Positions 16,063-48,123 of a stretch of DNA of 64,000 nucleotides are shown piece after piece; the first letter of the stretch is position 1, and every line of letters starts with the position of its first letter. The translations under genes were made by a program, and so were the position numbers. The notes under the pieces were generated by a model. That model was given only the letters and a program-made list of their open reading frames with translations. It did no database searches and was not told where the DNA came from. Origin of the DNA: Clostridiaceae bacterium (GTDB taxonomy: Bacteria > Bacillota > Clostridia > Acetivibrionales > DULL01); contig DULL01000066.1 in NCBI GenBank assembly GCA_012840395.1, positions 49,403-113,402 of the forward strand, written 5' to 3'.

Positions 16063-17127
16063 ATGAAGAAAAAACTGGCTATTCTTTTATGCTTCGTGTT
16101 GCTATTTGTATTCACAGCATGCGGCAAAAACACTTCTGATAAGAGTGGAACATCAACTACAACCCCTTCAACCACACAAGAATCAAATGCTAATGAACCC
16201 ATTGGCCCAAATATTACACTTAAAATCGGTTTCAGTACTAATGAGCAAGACCCACGTGGTTTAGCATCTCAGCTCTTTAAAAAGACAGTGGAAGAAAAAA
16301 CCGGCAAAACCGTTACTGTTGAGATCTATCCTTCAGGACAGTTGGGAGGAGATGCCGCGCTAATTGAGGCTATGGCATTGGATTCAGGTACAGTAGATAT
16401 TATTATTACTGACGCCAGCAATTTTGCAACATATGAGCCAAAGATGGGAATTTCTGCACTTCCATTTTTGTTTGAAAACTTTGAGGAAGCGTGGGCATTT
16501 ATGGACAGCGACATAGTTGCTGAAGTAGAGAAATTGCTCTTAGATGACAATATCCGGGTGTTATCTCATTTCTGCAATGGTTTCCGCTGTGTTACAACAT
16601 CAAAGGTTAAAGTTAACTCACCAGAAGATATGAAAGGAATGCTGATCCGTACCCCAGAGAATCCTGTTATCATGGCTACTATGCGTGCTTTGGGAGCCAA
16701 TCCGCAGCCTCTTGCTTTTTCAGAACTCTATATGGCTCTTCAACAAGGTACTTATGATGCACAGGAAAATCCCATACCTGTTATTTATAATAATAAACTA
16801 TATGAAGTTCAATCCTATCTTTCTGTGACAAACCATATTTATTCAGGTATGTGTTTTGCAATAGCTGAAAGCACCTGGAAGAAGATGAGCCCTGCACAGC
16901 AAGAGATTGTTGCCGCAGCAGCCAAGGAAGCTGAAAAATATAACCGTGAATTAAATAAACAAATGACAGAAGATTATATCAGCAAGCTTGAAGCTGAAAA
17001 CATGACTATTATTACTCCTGAACTTGCTCCATTTGTAGAAGCGACCAAGGTTGTTGCCGAGAATCTGAAAGATTCCTATGGAGAAGAACTACTTGCAAAA
17101 TTGGCTGAATGGCAAAAAAATAAATAA
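16063..17127 (+). CDS. dctP: TRAP transporter solute-binding lipoprotein, DctP family
   Basis: 354 residues with AGGAGG before ATG 16063. The signal peptide ends in a lipobox (VFTACG), so the protein is lipid-anchored outside the membrane. A Thr/Ser-rich linker leads into the DctP domain, with KIGFSTNEQDP, IEIYPSGQLGGD-like VEIYPSGQLGGDAALIE, the ligand-binding Arg in GMLIRTPENP, and GTYDAQENPIPVI. TRAP receptors bind carboxylates such as sugar acids or dicarboxylates through that Arg. It captures the substrate for the DctQ/DctM permease encoded just downstream. Confidence 0.93.
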   Translation: MKKKLAILLCFVLLFVFTACGKNTSDKSGTSTTTPSTTQESNANEPIGPNITLKIGFSTNEQDPRGLASQLFKKTVEEKTGKTVTVEIYPSGQLGGDAALIEAMALDSGTVDIIITDASNFATYEPKMGISALPFLFENFEEAWAFMDSDIVAEVEKLLLDDNIRVLSHFCNGFRCVTTSKVKVNSPEDMKGMLIRTPENPVIMATMRALGANPQPLAFSELYMALQQGTYDAQENPIPVIYNNKLYEVQSYLSVTNHIYSGMCFAIAESTWKKMSPAQQEIVAAAAKEAEKYNRELNKQMTEDYISKLEAENMTIITPELAPFVEATKVVAENLKDSYGEELLAKLAEWQKNK

Positions 17128-17156
17128 ATTATATAAGGACCAACGGTAGGCAGGTG

Positions 17157-17181
17157 AGGTGAAGCACCATAAGCTTCACCT
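17157..17181 (+). promoter_or_regulatory. Intercistronic hairpin between dctP and dctQ
   Basis: AGGTGAAGC (17157-17165) pairs perfectly with GCTTCACCT (17173-17181) around a 7-nt loop, without a T-run. Such hairpins often protect the upstream binding-protein mRNA, giving more receptor than permease. That role is inferred. Confidence 0.6.
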
Positions 17182-17214
17182 GCTTAATATATGTGGATAG
17201 AAAGGAGAGCAGTT

Positions 17215-17718
17215 ATGCTCAAACTGCAAAAGGTAATAGATAAAACTGCTACCATAATAAGTAGCATTTTATTAGGAATAATGGTAGTTATTTTAATTTA
17301 CAATGTGGCTGCCCGTTTCCTTGGCGGTGGTATCCGGTGGTATATGGAAGGTTCCCAATATCTGAATGTTTGGGCTATGTTCATTGCAGGCATTGGTATT
17401 TGTGTGACCACAGACCATTTAAGAATTTCCCTGATTGAAGATCTGCTTAAAGGTAAAATTAAGTTTGCAAATAAGATTATTGTAGGCATAATAAATTTTT
17501 CTTTCTATTGCTTACTGACTTACGGAACATATTTGCTTGCCAGCAAATCCAGGCAGGAAATATCAACCATGCCACCATTGAAAATGTCATATGTCTATTG
17601 GCTAATGCCTGTGGCATCTGCTTTAAGTGCAATTTCTGTAATTATCGGCTTAATTGTTGACTTAAATAATAAAGACAAAAAAGGGGGTTCTGCCTGTGAT
17701 AGCATTTCTCATGATTAG
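17215..17718 (+). CDS. dctQ: TRAP transporter small permease, DctQ family
   Basis: 167 residues from ATG 17215, 6 nt after AAAGGAGA (17201-17208); the upstream ATG 17191 lacks a site. Four membrane helices are visible, with the DctQ hallmark EGSQYLNVWAMFIAGIGI and a polar segment TTDHLRISLIEDLL. It associates with DctM to form the Na+-coupled membrane part. The last 23 nt overlap the start of dctM, which implies translational coupling. Confidence 0.92.
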   Translation: MLKLQKVIDKTATIISSILLGIMVVILIYNVAARFLGGGIRWYMEGSQYLNVWAMFIAGIGICVTTDHLRISLIEDLLKGKIKFANKIIVGIINFSFYCLLTYGTYLLASKSRQEISTMPPLKMSYVYWLMPVASALSAISVIIGLIVDLNNKDKKGGSACDSISHD

Positions 17719-18970
17719 TTTCTTCGTCCTTCTGGCATTGGGAGTTCCTATCGCAGTATCGTTAGGTTTGTCATCAATATTAGGAATACTTTTTATTGGC
17801 GGCAGCAATATGGTTACAGTAGGTCAACGTGTGTTTGAGGGTATGAACTCCTTTGCATTACTGGCTATTCCCCTTTATACATTTGCCGGCCTAGTTATGG
17901 GAAAGGGTGGGATCGCCCGCCGTATTATCAACTTTTGCTATTCTATAGCTGGCTATGTAATAGGAGGACTGGCTCATGTAAATGTACTTGCAAGTATGGT
18001 GTTCGCAGGTATTTCAGGATCTGCGGCTGCAGATACCGCTGGAGTAAGCGGGCTTTTGATGCCAGAAATGGTGAAGAAAAAATATAGCAAGGAATTTACT
18101 GTTGCTGTAACAGCCATTTCTTCAACTATTGGCATTATAATTCCCCCAAGCATACCAATGGTTGTATTGGGCGGTATTTTAGGCGTATCTACCGGGAAAC
18201 TTTTCCTTGGTGGAATTATTCCGGGAATTATTCTTGGTATTGCTCAAATGATAGTGTCCTATTTTGTTGCTAAAAAAGAAGGGGTGCCTAAAGAAGAGGG
18301 TAAAATACAGTTTAAGCCTATTTTAGTAGCCTTAAAAGAATCTTTCCTGGCTATACTTATGCCATTTATAATTATTGGCTCTATAATGAGCGGAATAGTA
18401 TCCCCTACAGAGGCTGGAGTTATTGCAGTTGTATACGGACTGATTGTTGGCGGACTGGTTTATAAGGAGTTAAAGTGGGAAGATATTAAAATAGCAATGC
18501 TGGAAACTGCCAAAACTTGCGGCAAAATATTTATAATAATTGGGGCAGCTGCATTATACACCAAGCTTTTAACTACTGCAGGCTTCCATATATTTGTAAG
18601 AGATTTTCTATTATCAATATCAACAAATCCTACAGTAATACTGTTAATTATATTATTAATTATATTGATAGTAACAACATTTATGGAAAGCATTGCAACA
18701 CTTACGCTTTTAATGCCGGTACTGTTTCCTGTTACCCAGGCAGTGGGGATTGACCCAACTGTTTTCTGCGTTCTTGTTGTAGTATGCATAGGTGTAGGAC
18801 TTGTAACTCCGCCGGTGGGTATGTGCCTTTATATAGCATGTGATCTCATGGATCTGGATATAATACCTGCTACCAAGGCTTTGCTTCCGTTTATATTCGC
18901 TACATTAATATGTATTTTACTATTTATATTATTCCCAGGATTAATACTATGGCCGGCAAGCTTTATCTAA
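17696..18970 (+). CDS. dctM: TRAP transporter large permease, DctM family
   Basis: 424 residues, GTG start 17696 with AAGGGGG 8 nt upstream. About eleven to twelve membrane segments form the transport core. Conserved stretches are IPLYTFAGLVMGKGGIARR, MVFAGISGSAAADTAGVSG, ISSTIGIIIPPSIPMVVLGG, GIVSPTEAGVIAVVYG and GVGLVTPPVGMCLYIACD. These match the elevator-type DctM subunit that moves the substrate with Na+. No truncation is seen. Together with dctP and dctQ it makes a complete tripartite system. Confidence 0.94.
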   Translation: MIAFLMISFFVLLALGVPIAVSLGLSSILGILFIGGSNMVTVGQRVFEGMNSFALLAIPLYTFAGLVMGKGGIARRIINFCYSIAGYVIGGLAHVNVLASMVFAGISGSAAADTAGVSGLLMPEMVKKKYSKEFTVAVTAISSTIGIIIPPSIPMVVLGGILGVSTGKLFLGGIIPGIILGIAQMIVSYFVAKKEGVPKEEGKIQFKPILVALKESFLAILMPFIIIGSIMSGIVSPTEAGVIAVVYGLIVGGLVYKELKWEDIKIAMLETAKTCGKIFIIIGAAALYTKLLTTAGFHIFVRDFLLSISTNPTVILLIILLIILIVTTFMESIATLTLLMPVLFPVTQAVGIDPTVFCVLVVVCIGVGLVTPPVGMCLYIACDLMDLDIIPATKALLPFIFATLICILLFILFPGLILWPASFI

Positions 18971-19028
18971 TATATGTTACTTAATGTGGCCTATATTATA
19001 TAAGCATATTAAATGAAAGGACTATGTT

Positions 19029-19931
19029 ATGAAACTAATCAATAGCGTTTGTACAAATTTATACTTCCCAAAATCCCGGAAAAACATTGATGAATTCCGC
19101 AGGATGGCATATTTTCTCGCTGAAAAGGGAATAGAGTGCATTGAATTTTACCATGACGGGGACAGCAGGGACAAGATAGGGAGTGTACTGCTTGATACAG
19201 GCCTTTCAAGTGTTTATATTGCAGTAATACCATCAAAAGAAAGCAGGTTGGATCTTTGCCACGAAAGTGAAGAAGGAAGAACTGCAGCAGTAAAGCTCTT
19301 TAAAAGCTGTATAGATGAGGCTCAGCATAATGGCATACCGGAGATAATGATGAATTCAGGAAGAATAGGAAACAATGTGGAAAAAGGCCTGGATTCTCTG
19401 GCAAAATCAATTGAAGAGCTATATGACTATGTTCAGCAGAAAAATTACAGCTTGTGCTTTTTGATGGAGCCTTGTGACAGCATTATGGAAGCCTTCCACC
19501 TTATTGGCCCATATGCCCGGACACTGGAATTTATGAAAAGAATGGATAATGCAGGTTTGCCTATAAAACTCACTTTGGATACTGCCCACACCGTTGAAGA
19601 AGGAGAGAATTTTTTAGAAGCTCTTAAAGCTGTAAAGCCTTATTGCAACCATATTCATTTTGCAAATTGCTTTATAAAAGACAGAAAGAATCCACTATAT
19701 GGTGATAAACATCTGGGTTATGAATATCCGGATACTGAATGGATGATACCTGATCTGTCAAATTTATTTATTAGTTTAGAAGGCTTATATGGGCATGATG
19801 AAGATTTGCGTATAGGACTTGAAGCACTATGCCGCCAGGAAGATCCATATGAGTATTTCAACAGTGTTTGGGAAAGTTTAACCTTTCTTCATAAGAACTT
19901 AAAGGAGGAGAATAGCTATGACATCAGATGA
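19029..19931 (+). CDS. Sugar phosphate isomerase/epimerase-like TIM-barrel protein
   Basis: 300 residues; GAAAGGA precedes ATG 19029. The sequence has the layout of the xylose-isomerase-like TIM barrel (AP endonuclease 2 family): GIECIEFYHDG early, a mid strand with LMEPCDSIMEAF, the metal-binding segment LTLDTAHTVEEG, then HIHFANCFIKDRKNP and GDKHLGYEYPDTEWM. Acidic and His residues at the strand ends fit a divalent metal site used for aldose-ketose isomerisation or epimerisation. The gene overlaps the transketolase gene by 14 nt, so it probably makes the ketose used by that enzyme. The true substrate is unknown. Confidence 0.75.
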   Translation: MKLINSVCTNLYFPKSRKNIDEFRRMAYFLAEKGIECIEFYHDGDSRDKIGSVLLDTGLSSVYIAVIPSKESRLDLCHESEEGRTAAVKLFKSCIDEAQHNGIPEIMMNSGRIGNNVEKGLDSLAKSIEELYDYVQQKNYSLCFLMEPCDSIMEAFHLIGPYARTLEFMKRMDNAGLPIKLTLDTAHTVEEGENFLEALKAVKPYCNHIHFANCFIKDRKNPLYGDKHLGYEYPDTEWMIPDLSNLFISLEGLYGHDEDLRIGLEALCRQEDPYEYFNSVWESLTFLHKNLKEENSYDIR

Positions 19932-20736
19932 GCTTCGCCGTATGGCAAACAGGTTGCGTTTGGATGTGGTTGAAGCGGTTCATGCTGTTGGAGACGGACA
20001 TCCGGGGCCTAGTATGTCAATTGCAGAAATACTGTCTGTTTTATATTTTGATAAAATGAATATCAACCCCCAGAAGCCCCGTTGGCCTGAGAGGGATAGA
20101 CTGATTCTGTCAAAAGGTCATGCTTGTCCAATTCTGTATGCTGCCCTTGCAAGAAAAGGATACTTTTCAATAGAGGAACTAAAAAAGCTTCGTATGTTTG
20201 AAGGAATGCTCCAGGGACATCCTGATATGAATAAGACACCAGGTATAGATATGACTTCAGGTTCCCTGGGAAATGGGATAGGTATTGGCCTGGGTATGGC
20301 TCTTGGATGCAAAATGCAGGGTCAAAAGAGCTTTATCTATGTCATAGTTGGAGATGGTGAACAGCAGGAAGGAGTTATTTGGGAGGCAGCTATGGCTGCA
20401 GCAAAGTATAAGGCGGGCAACTTAATTGTATTTGCTGACTGCAATAATAACCAGTCCGGTGGGAAAGTTACCGAGTTAAGCTCCCTTTATCCGGTAGCAG
20501 ATAAATGGAAAGCTTTTCACTGGCATGTACAGACAATAGATGGCCATGATGTTGATGCCATAAAAGAAGCCATTGAAAAAGCAAAAGCAATTGAGGACAA
20601 ACCATCCCTGATTGAGTGTATAACAATAAAAGGCAAAAATATACCCTATATGGAAAATAACAATGCATGGCATAAAAGAACACCGACAGCAGAAGAAGTA
20701 AGAATAGCAAGAGAAGCATTAGGAGGTGCCATATGA
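19918..20736 (+). CDS. Transketolase N-terminal subunit
   Basis: 272 residues; AAAGGAGGAG lies within the end of the previous gene. It holds the thiamine-diphosphate pyrophosphate domain: DGHPGPSMSIAEILSVLYF, SKGHACPILYAAL, GSLGNGIGIGLGMALG, and the Mg/ThDP motif VGDGEQQEGVIWEA ending near ADCNNNQ. A separate C-terminal subunit follows with a 4-nt overlap. Transketolase moves two-carbon ketol units between sugars. Split versions like this are common in anaerobes, sometimes in specialised pathways rather than the central pentose phosphate route. Placement inside a transporter operon suggests the specialised kind. Confidence 0.92.
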   Translation: MTSDELRRMANRLRLDVVEAVHAVGDGHPGPSMSIAEILSVLYFDKMNINPQKPRWPERDRLILSKGHACPILYAALARKGYFSIEELKKLRMFEGMLQGHPDMNKTPGIDMTSGSLGNGIGIGLGMALGCKMQGQKSFIYVIVGDGEQQEGVIWEAAMAAAKYKAGNLIVFADCNNNQSGGKVTELSSLYPVADKWKAFHWHVQTIDGHDVDAIKEAIEKAKAIEDKPSLIECITIKGKNIPYMENNNAWHKRTPTAEEVRIAREALGGAI

Positions 20737-21689
20737 AGATAAAAAGTACAAGGGAAGCTGCAATAAGAGCCATTATAGAGGCAGCCGAAAAAGATGAGCG
20801 CATTATTGTTATATCTCCTGATTCAGTGCTTGCTGCACGTGCTGTTCCTTTTATGGAAAAATTCCCTGACAGGTTAATAGAAGTAGGTATAGCTGAACAA
20901 AATTCTGTTCTGGTGGCGGCGGGGATGGCGACCACAGGTTTGATACCTGTAGTAATTAGTTATGCAGGCTTCCTGACTATGCGAGCTTGTGAACAGATAC
21001 GTACTTTTGTGGCATATCCCGGCCTCAATGTAAAATTCATTGGCTTGAATGGAGGTATGCTGGGAGGTGAGAGAGAAGGCGTTACGCACCAGTTTTATGA
21101 GGATGTCGGAATAATGCGTTCTATACCTGGCACAAAGATTATAGCTCCGGCTGATGCAGGGCAAACCTACAAGGCTGCAAAGGCTATGTTGGAAGTAGAA
21201 GGTCCGGTGTATCTTAGATTAGGAAGCGGACGGGAACCTGAAGTATTTCCTGATGAAACACCGTTTGAATTTGGAAAAATTCATATGGTTAAATGTTATG
21301 GATATGATGTTGCAATTTTCGCAAGCGGATTTATTATGAACCGGGCAGCAGAGGCATTGGAGAAGTTGAAGGAAGAGGGTATAAATGGTATACTAATTAA
21401 TATTCCCACAATAAAACCAATGGATAGTAAAGCTATTGCACAGATACTGGAACAAACCAACTGTGCTGTAGCAGTAGAAGATCATAATTTCTTTTGCGGA
21501 ATGTCCAGTGCCATATGCGAAATTGCATCCCATTATCATCCCTGCTATGTTATCCGTATTGGACTAAGGGATATTTATCCCTGCAGTGGACATGCGGATG
21601 TATTGCTGGATGCCTATGGTCTTTCCGTGCAGGCAATTGTAGATGGTGCGAAAGAGGCTATAAACAGGAAAAAGGAGAAGATTGTATAA
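20733..21689 (+). CDS. Transketolase C-terminal subunit
   Basis: 318 residues, ATG 20733 overlapping the stop of the N-terminal subunit. The pyrimidine-binding domain carries the catalytic Glu in EVGIAEQNSVLVAAGMA, and the C-terminal transketolase domain carries VAIFASGFIMNRAAEALEKL and VAVEDHNFFCG. It completes the active site at the subunit interface. Length matches other split C-terminal subunits. The fused domain order in one-chain transketolases confirms that both halves are needed. Confidence 0.92.
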   Translation: MKIKSTREAAIRAIIEAAEKDERIIVISPDSVLAARAVPFMEKFPDRLIEVGIAEQNSVLVAAGMATTGLIPVVISYAGFLTMRACEQIRTFVAYPGLNVKFIGLNGGMLGGEREGVTHQFYEDVGIMRSIPGTKIIAPADAGQTYKAAKAMLEVEGPVYLRLGSGREPEVFPDETPFEFGKIHMVKCYGYDVAIFASGFIMNRAAEALEKLKEEGINGILINIPTIKPMDSKAIAQILEQTNCAVAVEDHNFFCGMSSAICEIASHYHPCYVIRIGLRDIYPCSGHADVLLDAYGLSVQAIVDGAKEAINRKKEKIV

Positions 21690-22463: not shown

Positions 22464-23510
22464 ATGGAAGGATATTTTAAACGAGTTACTCGTATGACTC
22501 CTACACGTTTATGGATTAATAATGTAACAGTATCCCAGGCAAGAGTAGGTATTGCTGCAGGAGCAGTGGGCTGCACGCAAAACCCATCCTACGTATCAAA
22601 AATGCTTAAGGAAGAACCACAGTTGTGTGAACAGCTGATTGATAAATGGATTGAAAAGACAGATGATGATACAGAAGTTTTAATCCAGGTTCAGGCAGAA
22701 CTGGTAGGTTTAATTGCCAGGGAATTTATGCCACTGTATGAATCAAGTCACGGTGAATTAGGTTATGTTACTATTCAAGGTGATCCTTTTCAGGAAAATA
22801 CTGATGCTATAATGCGCCAGGCTGAGATAGCCAGGGCCTATGGGCCTAATATTATGGTCAAAATCCCTGTAGTGCCAGATGGTATTAAAGCAATTTCATC
22901 ACTGGTAAAAATGGGAATCCCGGTATGCTGTACAGAAGTATTTGCCGTTCAGCAGGCCATTGATATTTGTGAAGCTTTACTCAAAGCAACAGAAGGCAAC
23001 CCAAAGACAGTGGTCTATCTTGCACACATTGCCGGTATATATGATGAGTATCTTGGAAATTATGTGAAAGCTAACAATATTGATATTGAACCGGATATAC
23101 TCTGGCATGCAGGAATTGCTGTAGCTAAAAAGGTTTATGAAACTGTTAAGGAACGCCGCTACCCGGTGGAATTTTTAAGTGGCGGAGCCCGCGGACTTCA
23201 TCATTTCACTGAGATGGTCGGAGCTGAAGCCACAGTTACAATTAATTGGTCAGGAACCGGTGAAGAACTTGAAAAATCTAATCCTGTTGTGGTACAGCGT
23301 TTTCATATGCCAACCCCTTCATCAGTAATAGATGAGCTTTTAAGAAAATTGCCTGATTTTAGAAAAGGGTTCTTCCCTGGGGAATTATCACCTGAAGAAT
23401 ATGAGAATTTTGGCCCAGTTGCCTTATTCCGCAATACTTTTGAAAAAGCATGGAAACAGGCTTTAGTTGAAATTTCTCAACGGCGTAAATTTAAAAAATT
23501 TGGAAGTTAG
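22464..23510 (+). CDS. Transaldolase-family aldolase
   Basis: 348 residues; AGAGGAGG precedes ATG 22464. The class I Schiff-base Lys lies in the strand ANIMVKIPVV-like NIMVKIPVVPDGIKA. Other barrel strands are ARVGIAAGAVGCTQNPSYV, GELGYVTIQGDPF, GIPVCCTEVFAVQQAID, LAHIAGIYDEYLGNYV, and VEFLSGGARGLHHFTEMVG. It is longer and more diverged than TalA/TalB and FSA types, so the exact substrate is open. It should cleave or transfer a three-carbon dihydroxyacetone unit. It is last in the operon, 15 nt after the regulator. No terminator follows, and the star-shaped RNA begins 50 nt downstream. Confidence 0.85.
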   Translation: MEGYFKRVTRMTPTRLWINNVTVSQARVGIAAGAVGCTQNPSYVSKMLKEEPQLCEQLIDKWIEKTDDDTEVLIQVQAELVGLIAREFMPLYESSHGELGYVTIQGDPFQENTDAIMRQAEIARAYGPNIMVKIPVVPDGIKAISSLVKMGIPVCCTEVFAVQQAIDICEALLKATEGNPKTVVYLAHIAGIYDEYLGNYVKANNIDIEPDILWHAGIAVAKKVYETVKERRYPVEFLSGGARGLHHFTEMVGAEATVTINWSGTGEELEKSNPVVVQRFHMPTPSSVIDELLRKLPDFRKGFFPGELSPEEYENFGPVALFRNTFEKAWKQALVEISQRRKFKKFGS

Positions 23511-23559
23511 AATTAATAAATTTTCATGAATAATTTTTATTGAAAAGGTCAATTATAAT

Positions 23560-23962
23560 AGCGTAACGGGTACGTAATGGTTGAGTCAAGACTTATATAT
23601 GTTCCGAAGGGGATATATATAGGTCGGCCAAAGATTGTATATATGTCTAAAGGCTGGTCCTACAGGCGTATATGCAGTCGGAGGGAAGATTCTATATAGT
23701 AGGGAAAGGTTTTATTATAGTCTGTATATGATTAGATTATAATAGGATCCCAACTTATTATATAGGGTCGAGCGAAGACCATGCAGAGTGCTGTTACGGT
23801 TATATGCAGCCGAGAGGTTGCATATAGCTGGGTAGGTATTTTGCATGGTCGAACGAACCATCATTATGGGTGATGAACTGCTTGGTTATGGCCGGAAGGT
23901 CATAGCTAGGTAATAAGTTATCTATAGTGGTGCAAGGTAGATCATTACGTGCTCGTTGTGTT
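23560..23962 (+). ncRNA. Candidate large structured RNA: six-way star with five regular 16-bp arms
   Basis: This 403-nt intergenic stretch has no credible ORF but pairs almost completely. The terminal helix P1 joins 23560-23582 to 23940-23962 (23 pairs). Five arms follow in order, each opening with exactly 16 continuous pairs: A 23590-23605/23610-23625; B 23633-23648/23664-23679; C 23688-23703/23754-23769; D 23777-23792/23835-23850; E 23859-23874/23917-23932. Arms C, D and E carry a second helix beyond an internal loop (C 23708-23723/23734-23750 with one bulge; D 23798-23811/23816-23829 with a GAGA tetraloop; E 23881-23893/23898-23910 with a GGAA tetraloop). The linkers are GAGTCAA, GGCCAAA, GGAGGGAA, GAGCGAA, GAACGAAC and CAAGGTA. 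Of 103 basal plus terminal pairs, 28 are G-T and none is A-C, which fixes the transcribed strand as plus. I know no matching family. It may be processed from the sugar operon transcript or have its own start; a TATAAT at 23554-23559 abuts P1 but has no good -35. Confidence 0.8.
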
Positions 23963-24136
23963 TTATATGGAAATATCCTCACTTTCATATTCCCAGAACA
24001 GCTTTATATTTTTTCCTGAGTTTGTCTGTTTCATTTCATCTATTTTATTAAATAAATATATTGAAACTCTAAACAAAATATGTTAACATTACACAGTATA
24101 AAAACATTTGTGCGTGACAGGAGGACAGAAGGTAAT

Positions 24137-24580
24137 ATGTCGAAAAATTCAACTTGCTTTCTGGTTGACTCTTCTATATTACCTGAAGTTTTTTCAAAGG
24201 TGGTAGAAGTCAAAAGGTTATTAACAAAATACCCTGGTAAAACCGTAAATGAAGCGGTAAAAGAAGTAAATATAAGCCGCAGCGCTTATTACAAATATAA
24301 AGATTTTGTTTTTCCTTTCTATGAGACTTCAAGAGGCAGGATAATTACTCTACATTTAGTTGTAGAAGATTTTCCAGGCATATTATCCAATATATTAAAT
24401 AAAATAGCCCTGTCAAAAGCAAATATTGTTACAATTAATCAAAATATTCCAATAAACGGATTGGCAGATGTAATTATATCAATTGAAACTGCAGATATGG
24501 AAATAAGTATAAAAGAACTTATGGATAGTATCAGCAGTATTGAAGGAGTTAGAAAACAGGCAATACTTGCAAGAGAATAG
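24137..24580 (+). CDS. ACT-domain regulatory protein (UPF0735/PheB type)
   Basis: 147 residues from ATG 24137, with AGAAGGT upstream. An N-terminal helix-turn-helix-like segment (TVNEAVKEVNISRSAYYKYKD) is followed by an ACT domain at about residues 70-145 (RIITLHLVVEDFPGILSNIL, ANIVTINQNIP, VIISIETADME). ACT domains bind amino acids. The gene ends 13 nt before homoserine dehydrogenase, and these two genes are paired in many Firmicutes. It is likely a cytosolic amino-acid-responsive protein tied to the aspartate-family pathway; its precise target is not known. Confidence 0.85.
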   Translation: MSKNSTCFLVDSSILPEVFSKVVEVKRLLTKYPGKTVNEAVKEVNISRSAYYKYKDFVFPFYETSRGRIITLHLVVEDFPGILSNILNKIALSKANIVTINQNIPINGLADVIISIETADMEISIKELMDSISSIEGVRKQAILARE

Positions 24581-47972: not shown

Positions 47973-48123
47973 TAATTGCTTTTGTGTTAGTATTAATTAA
48001 TGTTTTATATTAGTATGCACATTGATAATAATAAATATAGCGAAAGCAGACTGGGATATTATAAAATTTCATATTCTTGTCCATAATTAGTAATAAATGT
48101 AAATCTTTATTATGGAGGGAAAT

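What the first reader, a model, noticed from the sequence alone, without database searches (positions are those of the whole stretch)
23560..23962. Undescribed-looking star-shaped RNA: five arms of exactly 16 bp around a closed junction
Hand pairing shows a 23-bp terminal helix (23560-23582 with 23940-23962) enclosing five arms in series. Every arm opens with exactly 16 uninterrupted pairs and stops at a true mismatch or loop on each side: A 23590-23605/23610-23625, B 23633-23648/23664-23679, C 23688-23703/23754-23769, D 23777-23792/23835-23850, E 23859-23874/23917-23932. Linkers of 7-8 nt follow a G...AA pattern (GAGTCAA, GGCCAAA, GGAGGGAA, GAGCGAA, GAACGAAC). Arms A-D begin GAYY and end RGTC, so the junction units look like diverged copies of one module. 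Of 103 pairs, 28 are G-T and none is A-C, as expected for selection on a plus-strand RNA but not for a decaying DNA palindrome. The distal hairpins of D and E have GNRA loops. Equal 16-bp arms (about one and a half helical turns) suggest a geometric scaffold or multimer, like the ornate RNAs OLE, ROOL and GOLLD, but I recognise none of these here.
Basis: partly seen in the sequence, partly recalled or inferred. Interest (0 to 1): 0.95.

Follow-up and report, generated by a model that had tools for sequence, protein, structure and literature searches.

The report
Six-armed spore-linked star RNA
Many Bacillota genomes, nearly all of them with sporulation genes, carry a conserved and apparently undescribed element that likely makes a noncoding RNA predicted to fold into a six-helix star of equal 16-base-pair arms, probably inside the developing spore, where it would act as a rigid scaffold.

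Summary
In detail: 103 pairs, 28 G-U, no mismatch; plus-strand z -16.2. It is a conserved family. Of 92 distinct copies, 91 refold to a junction with at least four branches, 82 with five arms. On 73 non-redundant copies 95.5% of pair cells are kept (slid controls 38-44%), and 74 of 98 pairs show two-sided compensation. Rfam does not match the star in the window or 14 relatives. A model of arms A+B hits 137 of 398 Bacillota genomes; 134 of these carry sigG, against 172 of 261 without a hit. A forespore sigma-G-like promoter stands upstream of 85 of 92 copies, 15 of 92 control windows, and ends about where the star starts. New anatomy: all six helices share one module, with wobbles at pair 3 (U-G) and pair 12 (G-U) from the junction. 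In P0, B and the outer parts of D and E, same-type wobbles recur 11 bp apart. Five helices are flanked by A/G, and two arms end in GNRA loops. Best reading: a forespore-made scaffold RNA. Expression, assembly and function are untested.

The parts
23528..23532 (+). -35 element GAATA of a sigma-G/sigma-F-like promoter
   Evidence: 1 mismatch in all to the recalled consensus GHATR-N17/18-CATWHTA; motif with 2 mismatches or fewer in 85 of 92 copies
23551..23557 (+). -10 element AATTATA (family consensus CATAATA)
   Evidence: in 82 of 92 copies the -10 ends 18-23 nt before the GTYGAR motif
23560..23582 (+). closing helix P0, 5' strand (transcript predicted to begin about here)
   Evidence: pairs with 23940-23962; 16 or more of 18 inner pairs in 89 of 91 copies
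23583..23589 (+). linker 1 (GAGCCAA family; GAGTCAA here)
   Evidence: GAGCCAA 60, GAGCCCA 24, GAGTCAA 6, GAACCAA 1 of 91
23590..23625 (+). arm A: 16 bp (23590-23605/23610-23625) plus 4-nt loop
23626..23632 (+). linker 2 (GGCCAAA)
   Evidence: GGCCAAA in 80 of 91 copies
23633..23679 (+). arm B: 16 bp (23633-23648/23664-23679) plus a tip that varies between copies
23680..23687 (+). linker 3 (GGAGGGAA)
   Evidence: GGAGGGAA 58, GGCGGGAA 25 of 91
23688..23769 (+). arm C: 16 bp (23688-23703/23754-23769), 4x4 internal loop GAAA/CCAA, distal hairpin 23708-23749
23770..23776 (+). linker 4 (GAGCTAA family; GAGCGAA here)
   Evidence: GAGCTAA 61, GAGCGAA 17 of 91
23777..23850 (+). arm D: 16 bp (23777-23792/23835-23850), internal loop, 15-bp distal helix with GAGA tetraloop
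   Evidence: in many relatives RNAfold branches here
23851..23858 (+). linker 5 (GAACGAAC), less conserved
   Evidence: GAACGAAC 25, GAACGAAT 20, GAGCAAA 11 of 91
23859..23932 (+). arm E: 16 bp (23859-23874/23917-23932), internal loop, 15-bp distal helix closed by a GGAA tetraloop
   Evidence: distal part 42 nt long in 75 of 83 copies
23933..23939 (+). linker 6 (CAAGGTA), the most variable linker
   Evidence: CAAGGTA 25, TTAGGTA 16, GTAGCGTA 10 of 91
23940..23962 (+). closing helix P0, 3' strand, followed by a T-rich stretch (possible terminator)
   Evidence: T-run within 20 nt in 39 of 88 copies versus 25 of 88 at 60-80 nt, so termination is not established

Best explanation
This is most likely a stand-alone noncoding RNA gene of sigG-bearing Bacillota, likely transcribed in the forespore by sigma-G, whose product is predicted to fold into a rigid pseudo-sixfold star that would serve as an architectural scaffold in the developing spore. 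Shown by sequence: strong conservation of pairing in a six-helix plan, a 16-bp register, conserved junction linkers (1 to 4), the same G-U marks at pair 3 and pair 12 in the six helices, 11-bp recurrence of marks in P0, B and distal D and E, GNRA tips on D and E, a forespore-type promoter just before the star, near-restriction to genomes with sigG, and no conserved neighbour gene. Inferred: helices present marked faces once per turn (11 bp in A-form RNA) and two tips, which pack against helices of the same or neighbouring star RNAs, giving a compact, probably multimeric particle carried into the dormant spore. A spore protein may coat it, but none is needed to explain the marks. Not shown: transcription, multimerisation, presence in spores, phenotype.
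For: Fold. Of 92 copies refolded, 91 give a junction with at least 4 branches and 82 exactly five arms, mostly in 16 + internal loop + about 15 register. Pairing 95.5% versus 38-44% slid; 74 of 98 pairs two-sided; 23 of 29 predicted arm A/B pairs have two-sided changes. Promoter with 2 mismatches or fewer in 85 of 92 versus 15 of 92 control windows and 24% of shuffles; sigma-A 4 of 92. A matrix trained on star promoters scores 6 or more upstream of 13 of 30 SASP genes versus 1 of 30 and 2 of 28 control windows. Model hits in 137 of 398 genomes, 134 of them with sigG over the cut-off versus 172 of 261 without a hit; relatives 43 of 44 versus 44 of 104. SASP family in 22 of 22 hosts tested. Out-G/in-U at pair 12 in 89% of 462 helices, all six helices in 45 of 77 copies; GNU/GNU at the six canonical sites in 33 of 77, five or six in 58 of 77. 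Flanking A/G at A, B, C, D and P0 in 74-77 of 77. E tip GNAA in 58 of 59. No conserved neighbour. One dsRBD match per genome in 24 of 24, 14 with and 10 without the star.
Against: No transcript data were available. The sigma-G consensus is recalled, and sigma-F overlaps it (23 of 92 versus 2 of 92). SASP genes match only partly (13 of 30), and the one from the window's own genome scored low (2.8). A strict tree-based covariation null passes only 8 of 98 pairs. No covariation links the GNRA tips to a receptor. The wobble code is uneven: pair 3 is marked on all six helices in only 18 of 77 copies, and the 3/14 repeat is absent from C and D (1 and 0 of 77) and rare in E (18 of 77). 5 of 49 named-host genomes and 4 sample genomes with a hit lack sigG over the cut-off; the 4 whose quality was shown have 170-400 contigs. 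172 of 306 sigG-positive sample genomes have no hit, so it is not needed for sporulation in general. Only 6 copies outside the training set were re-checked; all 6 have the promoter, but 2 of their 6 control windows do too.
Confidence: 0.6

Rival explanations
1. Multivalent protein-binding RNP: each 16-bp arm is a separate docking site for a spore nucleic-acid-binding protein, which reads the wobble marks in the minor groove; six similar sites would concentrate or store that protein.
For: Same marks on six helices; GNU/GNU is two-fold symmetric, as a dimeric protein would like. A dsRBD contacts two minor-groove faces and some read bases there (PMC4770229, passages). SASPs occur in 22 of 22 hosts tested.
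Against: No extra dsRBD protein: one match per genome in 24 of 24, in open frames of 238-268 aa (one of 408), the length of RNase III. No linked protein gene. Binding of SASPs to RNA is not established (recalled).
Confidence: 0.25
2. Regulatory RNA of the spore: conserved single-stranded linkers pair with mRNAs or rRNA, or sequester a regulator, to hold or release translation in the spore.
For: Linkers 1-4 are strongly conserved; linker 3 GGAGGGAA resembles a ribosome-binding sequence (the resemblance is my reading).
Against: Linker 3 is GGCGGGAA in 25 of 91 copies; linkers are 7-8 nt inside a closed junction; a regulator would not need equal arms and periodic marks.
Confidence: 0.1
3. A cis-acting leader/terminator, or a DNA-level element (palindromic mobile element) with no RNA function.
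For: Patchy distribution, tandem near-identical copies, 3' remnants on two plasmids.
Against: No conserved neighbour in 92 contexts; G-U but not A-C tolerated; the minus strand folds far less well; no hit in viral contigs with the one pattern used or in phage records with two queries; a promoter just before the star.
Confidence: 0.04

Closest known systems
GOLLD, ROOL and OLE (ornate large bacterial RNAs)
   Same: Large RNAs with ornate secondary structure kept by covariation; reported to form homo-oligomers (PMC12286853: abstract, one section and passages seen).
   Different: No Rfam match at the star; different plan: six helices of 16-bp register around one junction, with wobble marks at fixed places; no viral-contig hit with one pattern.
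raiA-motif RNA / ModT
   Same: Structured RNA of Bacillota with a reported link to sporulation (title fragment in a reference list; start of the ModT abstract).
   Different: raiA motif is 205 nt and a monomer in cryo-EM (PMC12286853, passages); it was not compared here by sequence apart from the Rfam scans.
Sporulation small RNAs such as Bvs196 (CsfG and SscA are recalled)
   Same: Sporulation-specific noncoding RNA (Bvs196, 294 nt; title and start of abstract, PMC9147052).
   Different: Homology was not tested; nothing I saw describes them as multi-arm stars; star hosts span Bacilli, Clostridia and Negativicutes by title.

Membership tests
Any Rfam 15 family, incl. OLE, ROOL, GOLLD | covariance-model score at or above the gathering cut-off | tested here: not met
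   window, permissive scan of 23000-24500 (only overlapping hit 9.8 bits versus gathering 44), 14 relatives (its 4 matches lie outside the stars)
Ornate large noncoding RNA (descriptive kind) | stand-alone, large, complex structure conserved by compensation, with conserved unpaired bases | tested here: met
   that it is transcribed is not shown
Ornate large noncoding RNA (descriptive kind) | forms an RNA homo-oligomer (reported for GOLLD, ROOL, OLE) | not testable with these tools
   needs mass photometry/cryo-EM
Forespore sigma-G/sigma-F regulon | promoter matching GHATR-N17/18-CATWHTA (recalled) at the right distance | tested here: met
   85 of 92 versus 15 of 92 control windows; SASP positive control partly; 6 of 6 new copies versus 2 of 6 controls
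Forespore sigma-G/sigma-F regulon | host encodes sigma-G | tested here: met
   134 of 137 and 43 of 44, 44 of 49
Forespore sigma-G/sigma-F regulon | expression depends on sigma-G or sigma-F in vivo | not testable with these tools
   no transcript data
dsRBD-protein ligand | a dedicated dsRBD protein co-occurs with the RNA | tested here: not met
   one dsrm match per genome in 14 genomes with and 10 without the star
cis-regulatory leader / riboswitch | conserved neighbouring gene | tested here: not met
   largest ORF cluster touches 14 loci, at scattered distances on both sides

The most novel reading that the evidence does not exclude
A new class of natural RNA nanostructure: a six-armed star written as six copies of one 16-bp module, whose wobble pairs are phased to the 11-bp A-form repeat so that arms show the same marked face turn after turn. 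Forespores make it from a sigma-G promoter, and the stars lock into an RNA lattice or cage inside the dormant spore, a structural RNA component of the bacterial endospore.
Probability: 0.4. Interest if true: 0.98.

Novelty: categorically new. Interest (0 to 1): 0.94.

Why it matters
About a third of the Bacillota genomes sampled carry a hit (137 of 398), yet no Rfam 15 family matches it. A sporulation-linked structural RNA would add a new kind of component to the endospore, where how the core keeps its contents ordered and protected is an old question. Wobble marks placed at the helical repeat would be a directly testable natural design rule for RNA assembly, useful to RNA structural biology and nanotechnology. 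Cultured hosts exist among the titles (for example Sporomusa malonica DSM 5090, Desulfosporosinus lacus DSM 15449, Ectobacillus panaciterrae DSM 19096), none of them known to me as a pathogen.

Tried and rejected
Own-genome repeats: single copy; the other hits are 15-23 nt at E of 1.97 or more. Rfam permissive hits look like chance. Phages: none with two queries. Viral contigs: 0 with one pattern, which needs near-exact linkers and can miss diverged copies. Linked gene: none; largest ORF cluster touches 14 loci at scattered distances. Sigma-A, E, H and K promoters: not enriched like sigma-G; sigma-F is partly enriched and not excluded. P0 as universal terminator: weak. Dedicated dsRBD partner: not supported. 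GNRA-tip/receptor covariation: none found. Four short hits (L019, L025, L026, L027) do not fold as stars. One search was meant to sample Bacilli but drew from the same phylum; the hits I compared (e.g. G586 and G198) share coordinates and scores, so it is not counted as independent. The G·U marks were first read as a dsRBD-like footprint; that reading was kept only as a rival.

Full report
OBSERVATION. RNAfold of 23550-23975 finds the same star at -204.4 kcal/mol (z -16.24, 0 of 100 shuffles); the minus strand gives z -3.69 and another fold. No ORF of 100 codons or more overlaps it. It lies between a 348-codon ORF ending at 23510 and an ORF that starts at 24080 or later.

A REAL FAMILY. The window's genome has one copy. 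Among 148 relatives BLAST finds near-full-length homologues at 70-76% identity in five genomes, one of them with two copies, plus partial matches. Of the partial matches that I refolded, nine (L015-L018, L020-L024) show the star's arms by eye, L018 with its 3' end cut off in the fold, and four (L019, L025-L027) do not; the rest were not folded. One linker pattern run over 84,980 named species genomes gave 92 stretches. The 80 titles that I saw are all Bacillota (Clostridia, Bacilli, Negativicutes), e.g. Desulfosporosinus, Sporomusa, Propionispora, Acetivibrio, Clostridium, Caldicoprobacter, Ectobacillus, Paenibacillus. The same pattern found nothing in viral contigs. With the earlier loci this gives 101 copies, 92 distinct, after dropping 7 too near the end of the held stretch.

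STRUCTURE AND COVARIATION. RNAfold alone gives a junction with at least four branches in 91 of 92 copies: five arms in 82, four in 5, six in 4. 91 copies could be parsed; 1 was cut by the end of its stretch. P0 pairs at 16 or more of 18 in 89 of 91. Arms with 15-16 of 16 pairs: A 84, B 66, C 74, D 72, E 72 of 91. For the counts that follow, 8 of 91 were dropped for an arm under 11 of 16 pairs, then near-duplicates (97%), leaving 73 (helix identity mean 66%, minimum 43%). 95.5% of cells pair; 1943 cells are G-U and 29 A-C. Dropping badly paired copies raises the paired percentage somewhat. Sliding the strands by 1-3 gives 38-44%. 74 of 98 pairs have two canonical types differing on both sides, and for 113 of 196 columns the assigned partner is the best of 195. 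A strict tree-based null passes only 8 of 98 pairs at E < 0.05; among all column pairs at least 4 apart, 6 are significant and all 6 are in the structure. An independent MAFFT/RNAalifold run of arms A and B in 56 sequences gives two-sided changes in 23 of 29 arm pairs; it also pairs linker 1 with linker 2 (3 pairs, no two-sided change).

THE MODULE. Linkers 1-4 are strongly conserved (GAGCCAA, GGCCAAA, GGAGGGAA, GAGCTAA and close variants); linkers 5 and 6 vary more. Of the 19 invariant columns of alignment A1, 10 fall in linkers (my count). In the 77 of 91 copies with every arm at 13 or more of 16, helices A, B, C, D and P0 are flanked by A on one side and G on the other in 74-77 of 77 (E is not), and A, B, C and D mostly begin GAY and end GUC. 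Reading all six helices outward from the junction, pair 12 is out-G/in-U in 89% of 462 helices (79-94% by helix), against 7% on average at other positions. Pair 3 is out-U/in-G in 79% (49-94% by helix). 45 of 77 copies have the pair-12 mark on all six helices, but only 18 of 77 the pair-3 mark on all six. A symmetric GNU/GNU motif stands at pairs 12-14 of A, B and P0 and at pairs 2-4 of the distal helices of C, D and E; counting the two wobbles at those six places, 33 of 77 copies have all six and 25 five. Same-type marks recur 11 pairs apart in part of the helices: 1/12 and 3/14 in P0 (46 and 61 of 77), 3/14 in B (71) and A (36), 2/13 in distal D (66) and distal E (65); 3/14 is absent from C and D (1 and 0) and rare in E (18). 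Eleven pairs is one turn of A-form RNA (textbook knowledge), so those marks would lie on one face. D and E end in GNRA loops (62 and 71 of 77). The loop stands 19 nt from the 16-bp helix on the 3' side in 66 of 77 for D, and on both sides in 69 of 77 for E. E tips are GNAA in 58 of 59.

PROMOTER AND HOSTS. The consensus GHATR-N17/18-CATWHTA for sigma-G was recalled, not taken from a call. It is met with at most 2 mismatches in 85 of 92 copies (at most 1: 61), versus 15 (2) of 92 in the adjacent upstream window and 24% (2.4%) in shuffles; sigma-A 4 versus 1, sigma-F 23 versus 2 of 92. In 82 of 92 the -10 ends 18-23 nt before GTYGAR, so the start would fall at P0. The best-site columns read G[TAC]ATA and CATAATA. 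A weight matrix from star promoters scores 6 or more upstream of 13 of 30 SASP genes of star hosts versus 1 of 30 and 2 of 28 control windows; the SASP gene of the window's own genome scores 2.8. SASP genes are textbook sigma-G targets; their start codons were guessed by script. Sigma-F and sigma-G motifs overlap in C. difficile (PMC7438776, passages), so sigma-F is not excluded.

PREVALENCE. A covariance model of arms A+B hits 137 of 398 genomes of the phylum and 44 of 148 relatives at E <= 1e-3. I crossed these by hand with sigG hits over the curated cut-off, assigning each by its best E-value. With a hit: 134 of 137 and 43 of 44 have sigG. Without: 172 of 261 and 44 of 104. Fisher p 1.3e-15 and 1.3e-11; genomes are not phylogenetically independent and the two samples share genomes, so read these as descriptive. 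The exceptions G385, G473, G480 and G001 are assemblies of 170-400 contigs, 61-93% complete. Of 49 named-host genomes held, 44 have sigG over the cut-off. SASP: 22 of 22. The sample hits rest on a two-arm model; the whole star was examined only in the parsed copies and, more loosely (P0 and promoter), in 6 others.

CONTEXT. No neighbour gene is conserved. Copies can be tandem, 488-490 nt apart, three in L076 and two in L097, 421-425 of 426 core bases identical, each with a promoter-like sequence. Fragments of the 3' end lie on a Priestia plasmid, beside what reads like an insertion-sequence transposase (my reading, no annotation), and on a Peribacillus plasmid near an annotated spore coat gene.

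MECHANISM. Shown: conserved pairing, modular marks, forespore-type promoter, hosts nearly all with sigG. Inferred: forespore transcription; rigid star; packing through marked faces and tips; persistence in the spore. The absence of a linked gene and of an extra dsRBD protein argues mildly for RNA-RNA packing over a dedicated protein; against it, no coevolving tip/receptor pair was found.

NOVELTY. No Rfam match. I ran ten full-text searches of open-access papers, seven of them aimed at this RNA (listings and starts of abstracts seen), and read passages of three RNA-discovery papers. None showed such an RNA. Subscription papers and supplements were not searched, so an earlier description cannot be excluded.

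Noticed in passing
L076 (749-1833), L097 (4709-5301): Tandem stars 488-490 nt apart, nearly identical, each with a promoter-like sequence: dosage amplification or recent duplication.
   Followed up: partly
L009 (NZ_CP092390.1 about 48009-48057): Only a 49-nt 3' piece of a star was matched on a Priestia megaterium plasmid; the DNA upstream reads like the start of an insertion-sequence transposase, unannotated (my reading).
   Followed up: partly
L173 1501-1570 (Peribacillus frigoritolerans plasmid): 3' star fragment about 155 nt downstream of an annotated spore coat protein gene.
   Followed up: no
G033 (contigs C22, C36, C81, C20, C69, C26): Eight model hits in one genome of the same order; two lie 286 nt apart and are probably one star, so up to seven paralogues, two of them weak.
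   Followed up: no
L094 and five other loci: A cluster of LysM-like ORFs (my reading of the sequence) within about 1 kb of the star in six loci, possibly spore-coat genes.
   Followed up: no
window 16063-21689: TRAP-transporter and split transketolase gene cluster upstream (recalled from the ORF translations); ordinary.
   Followed up: no
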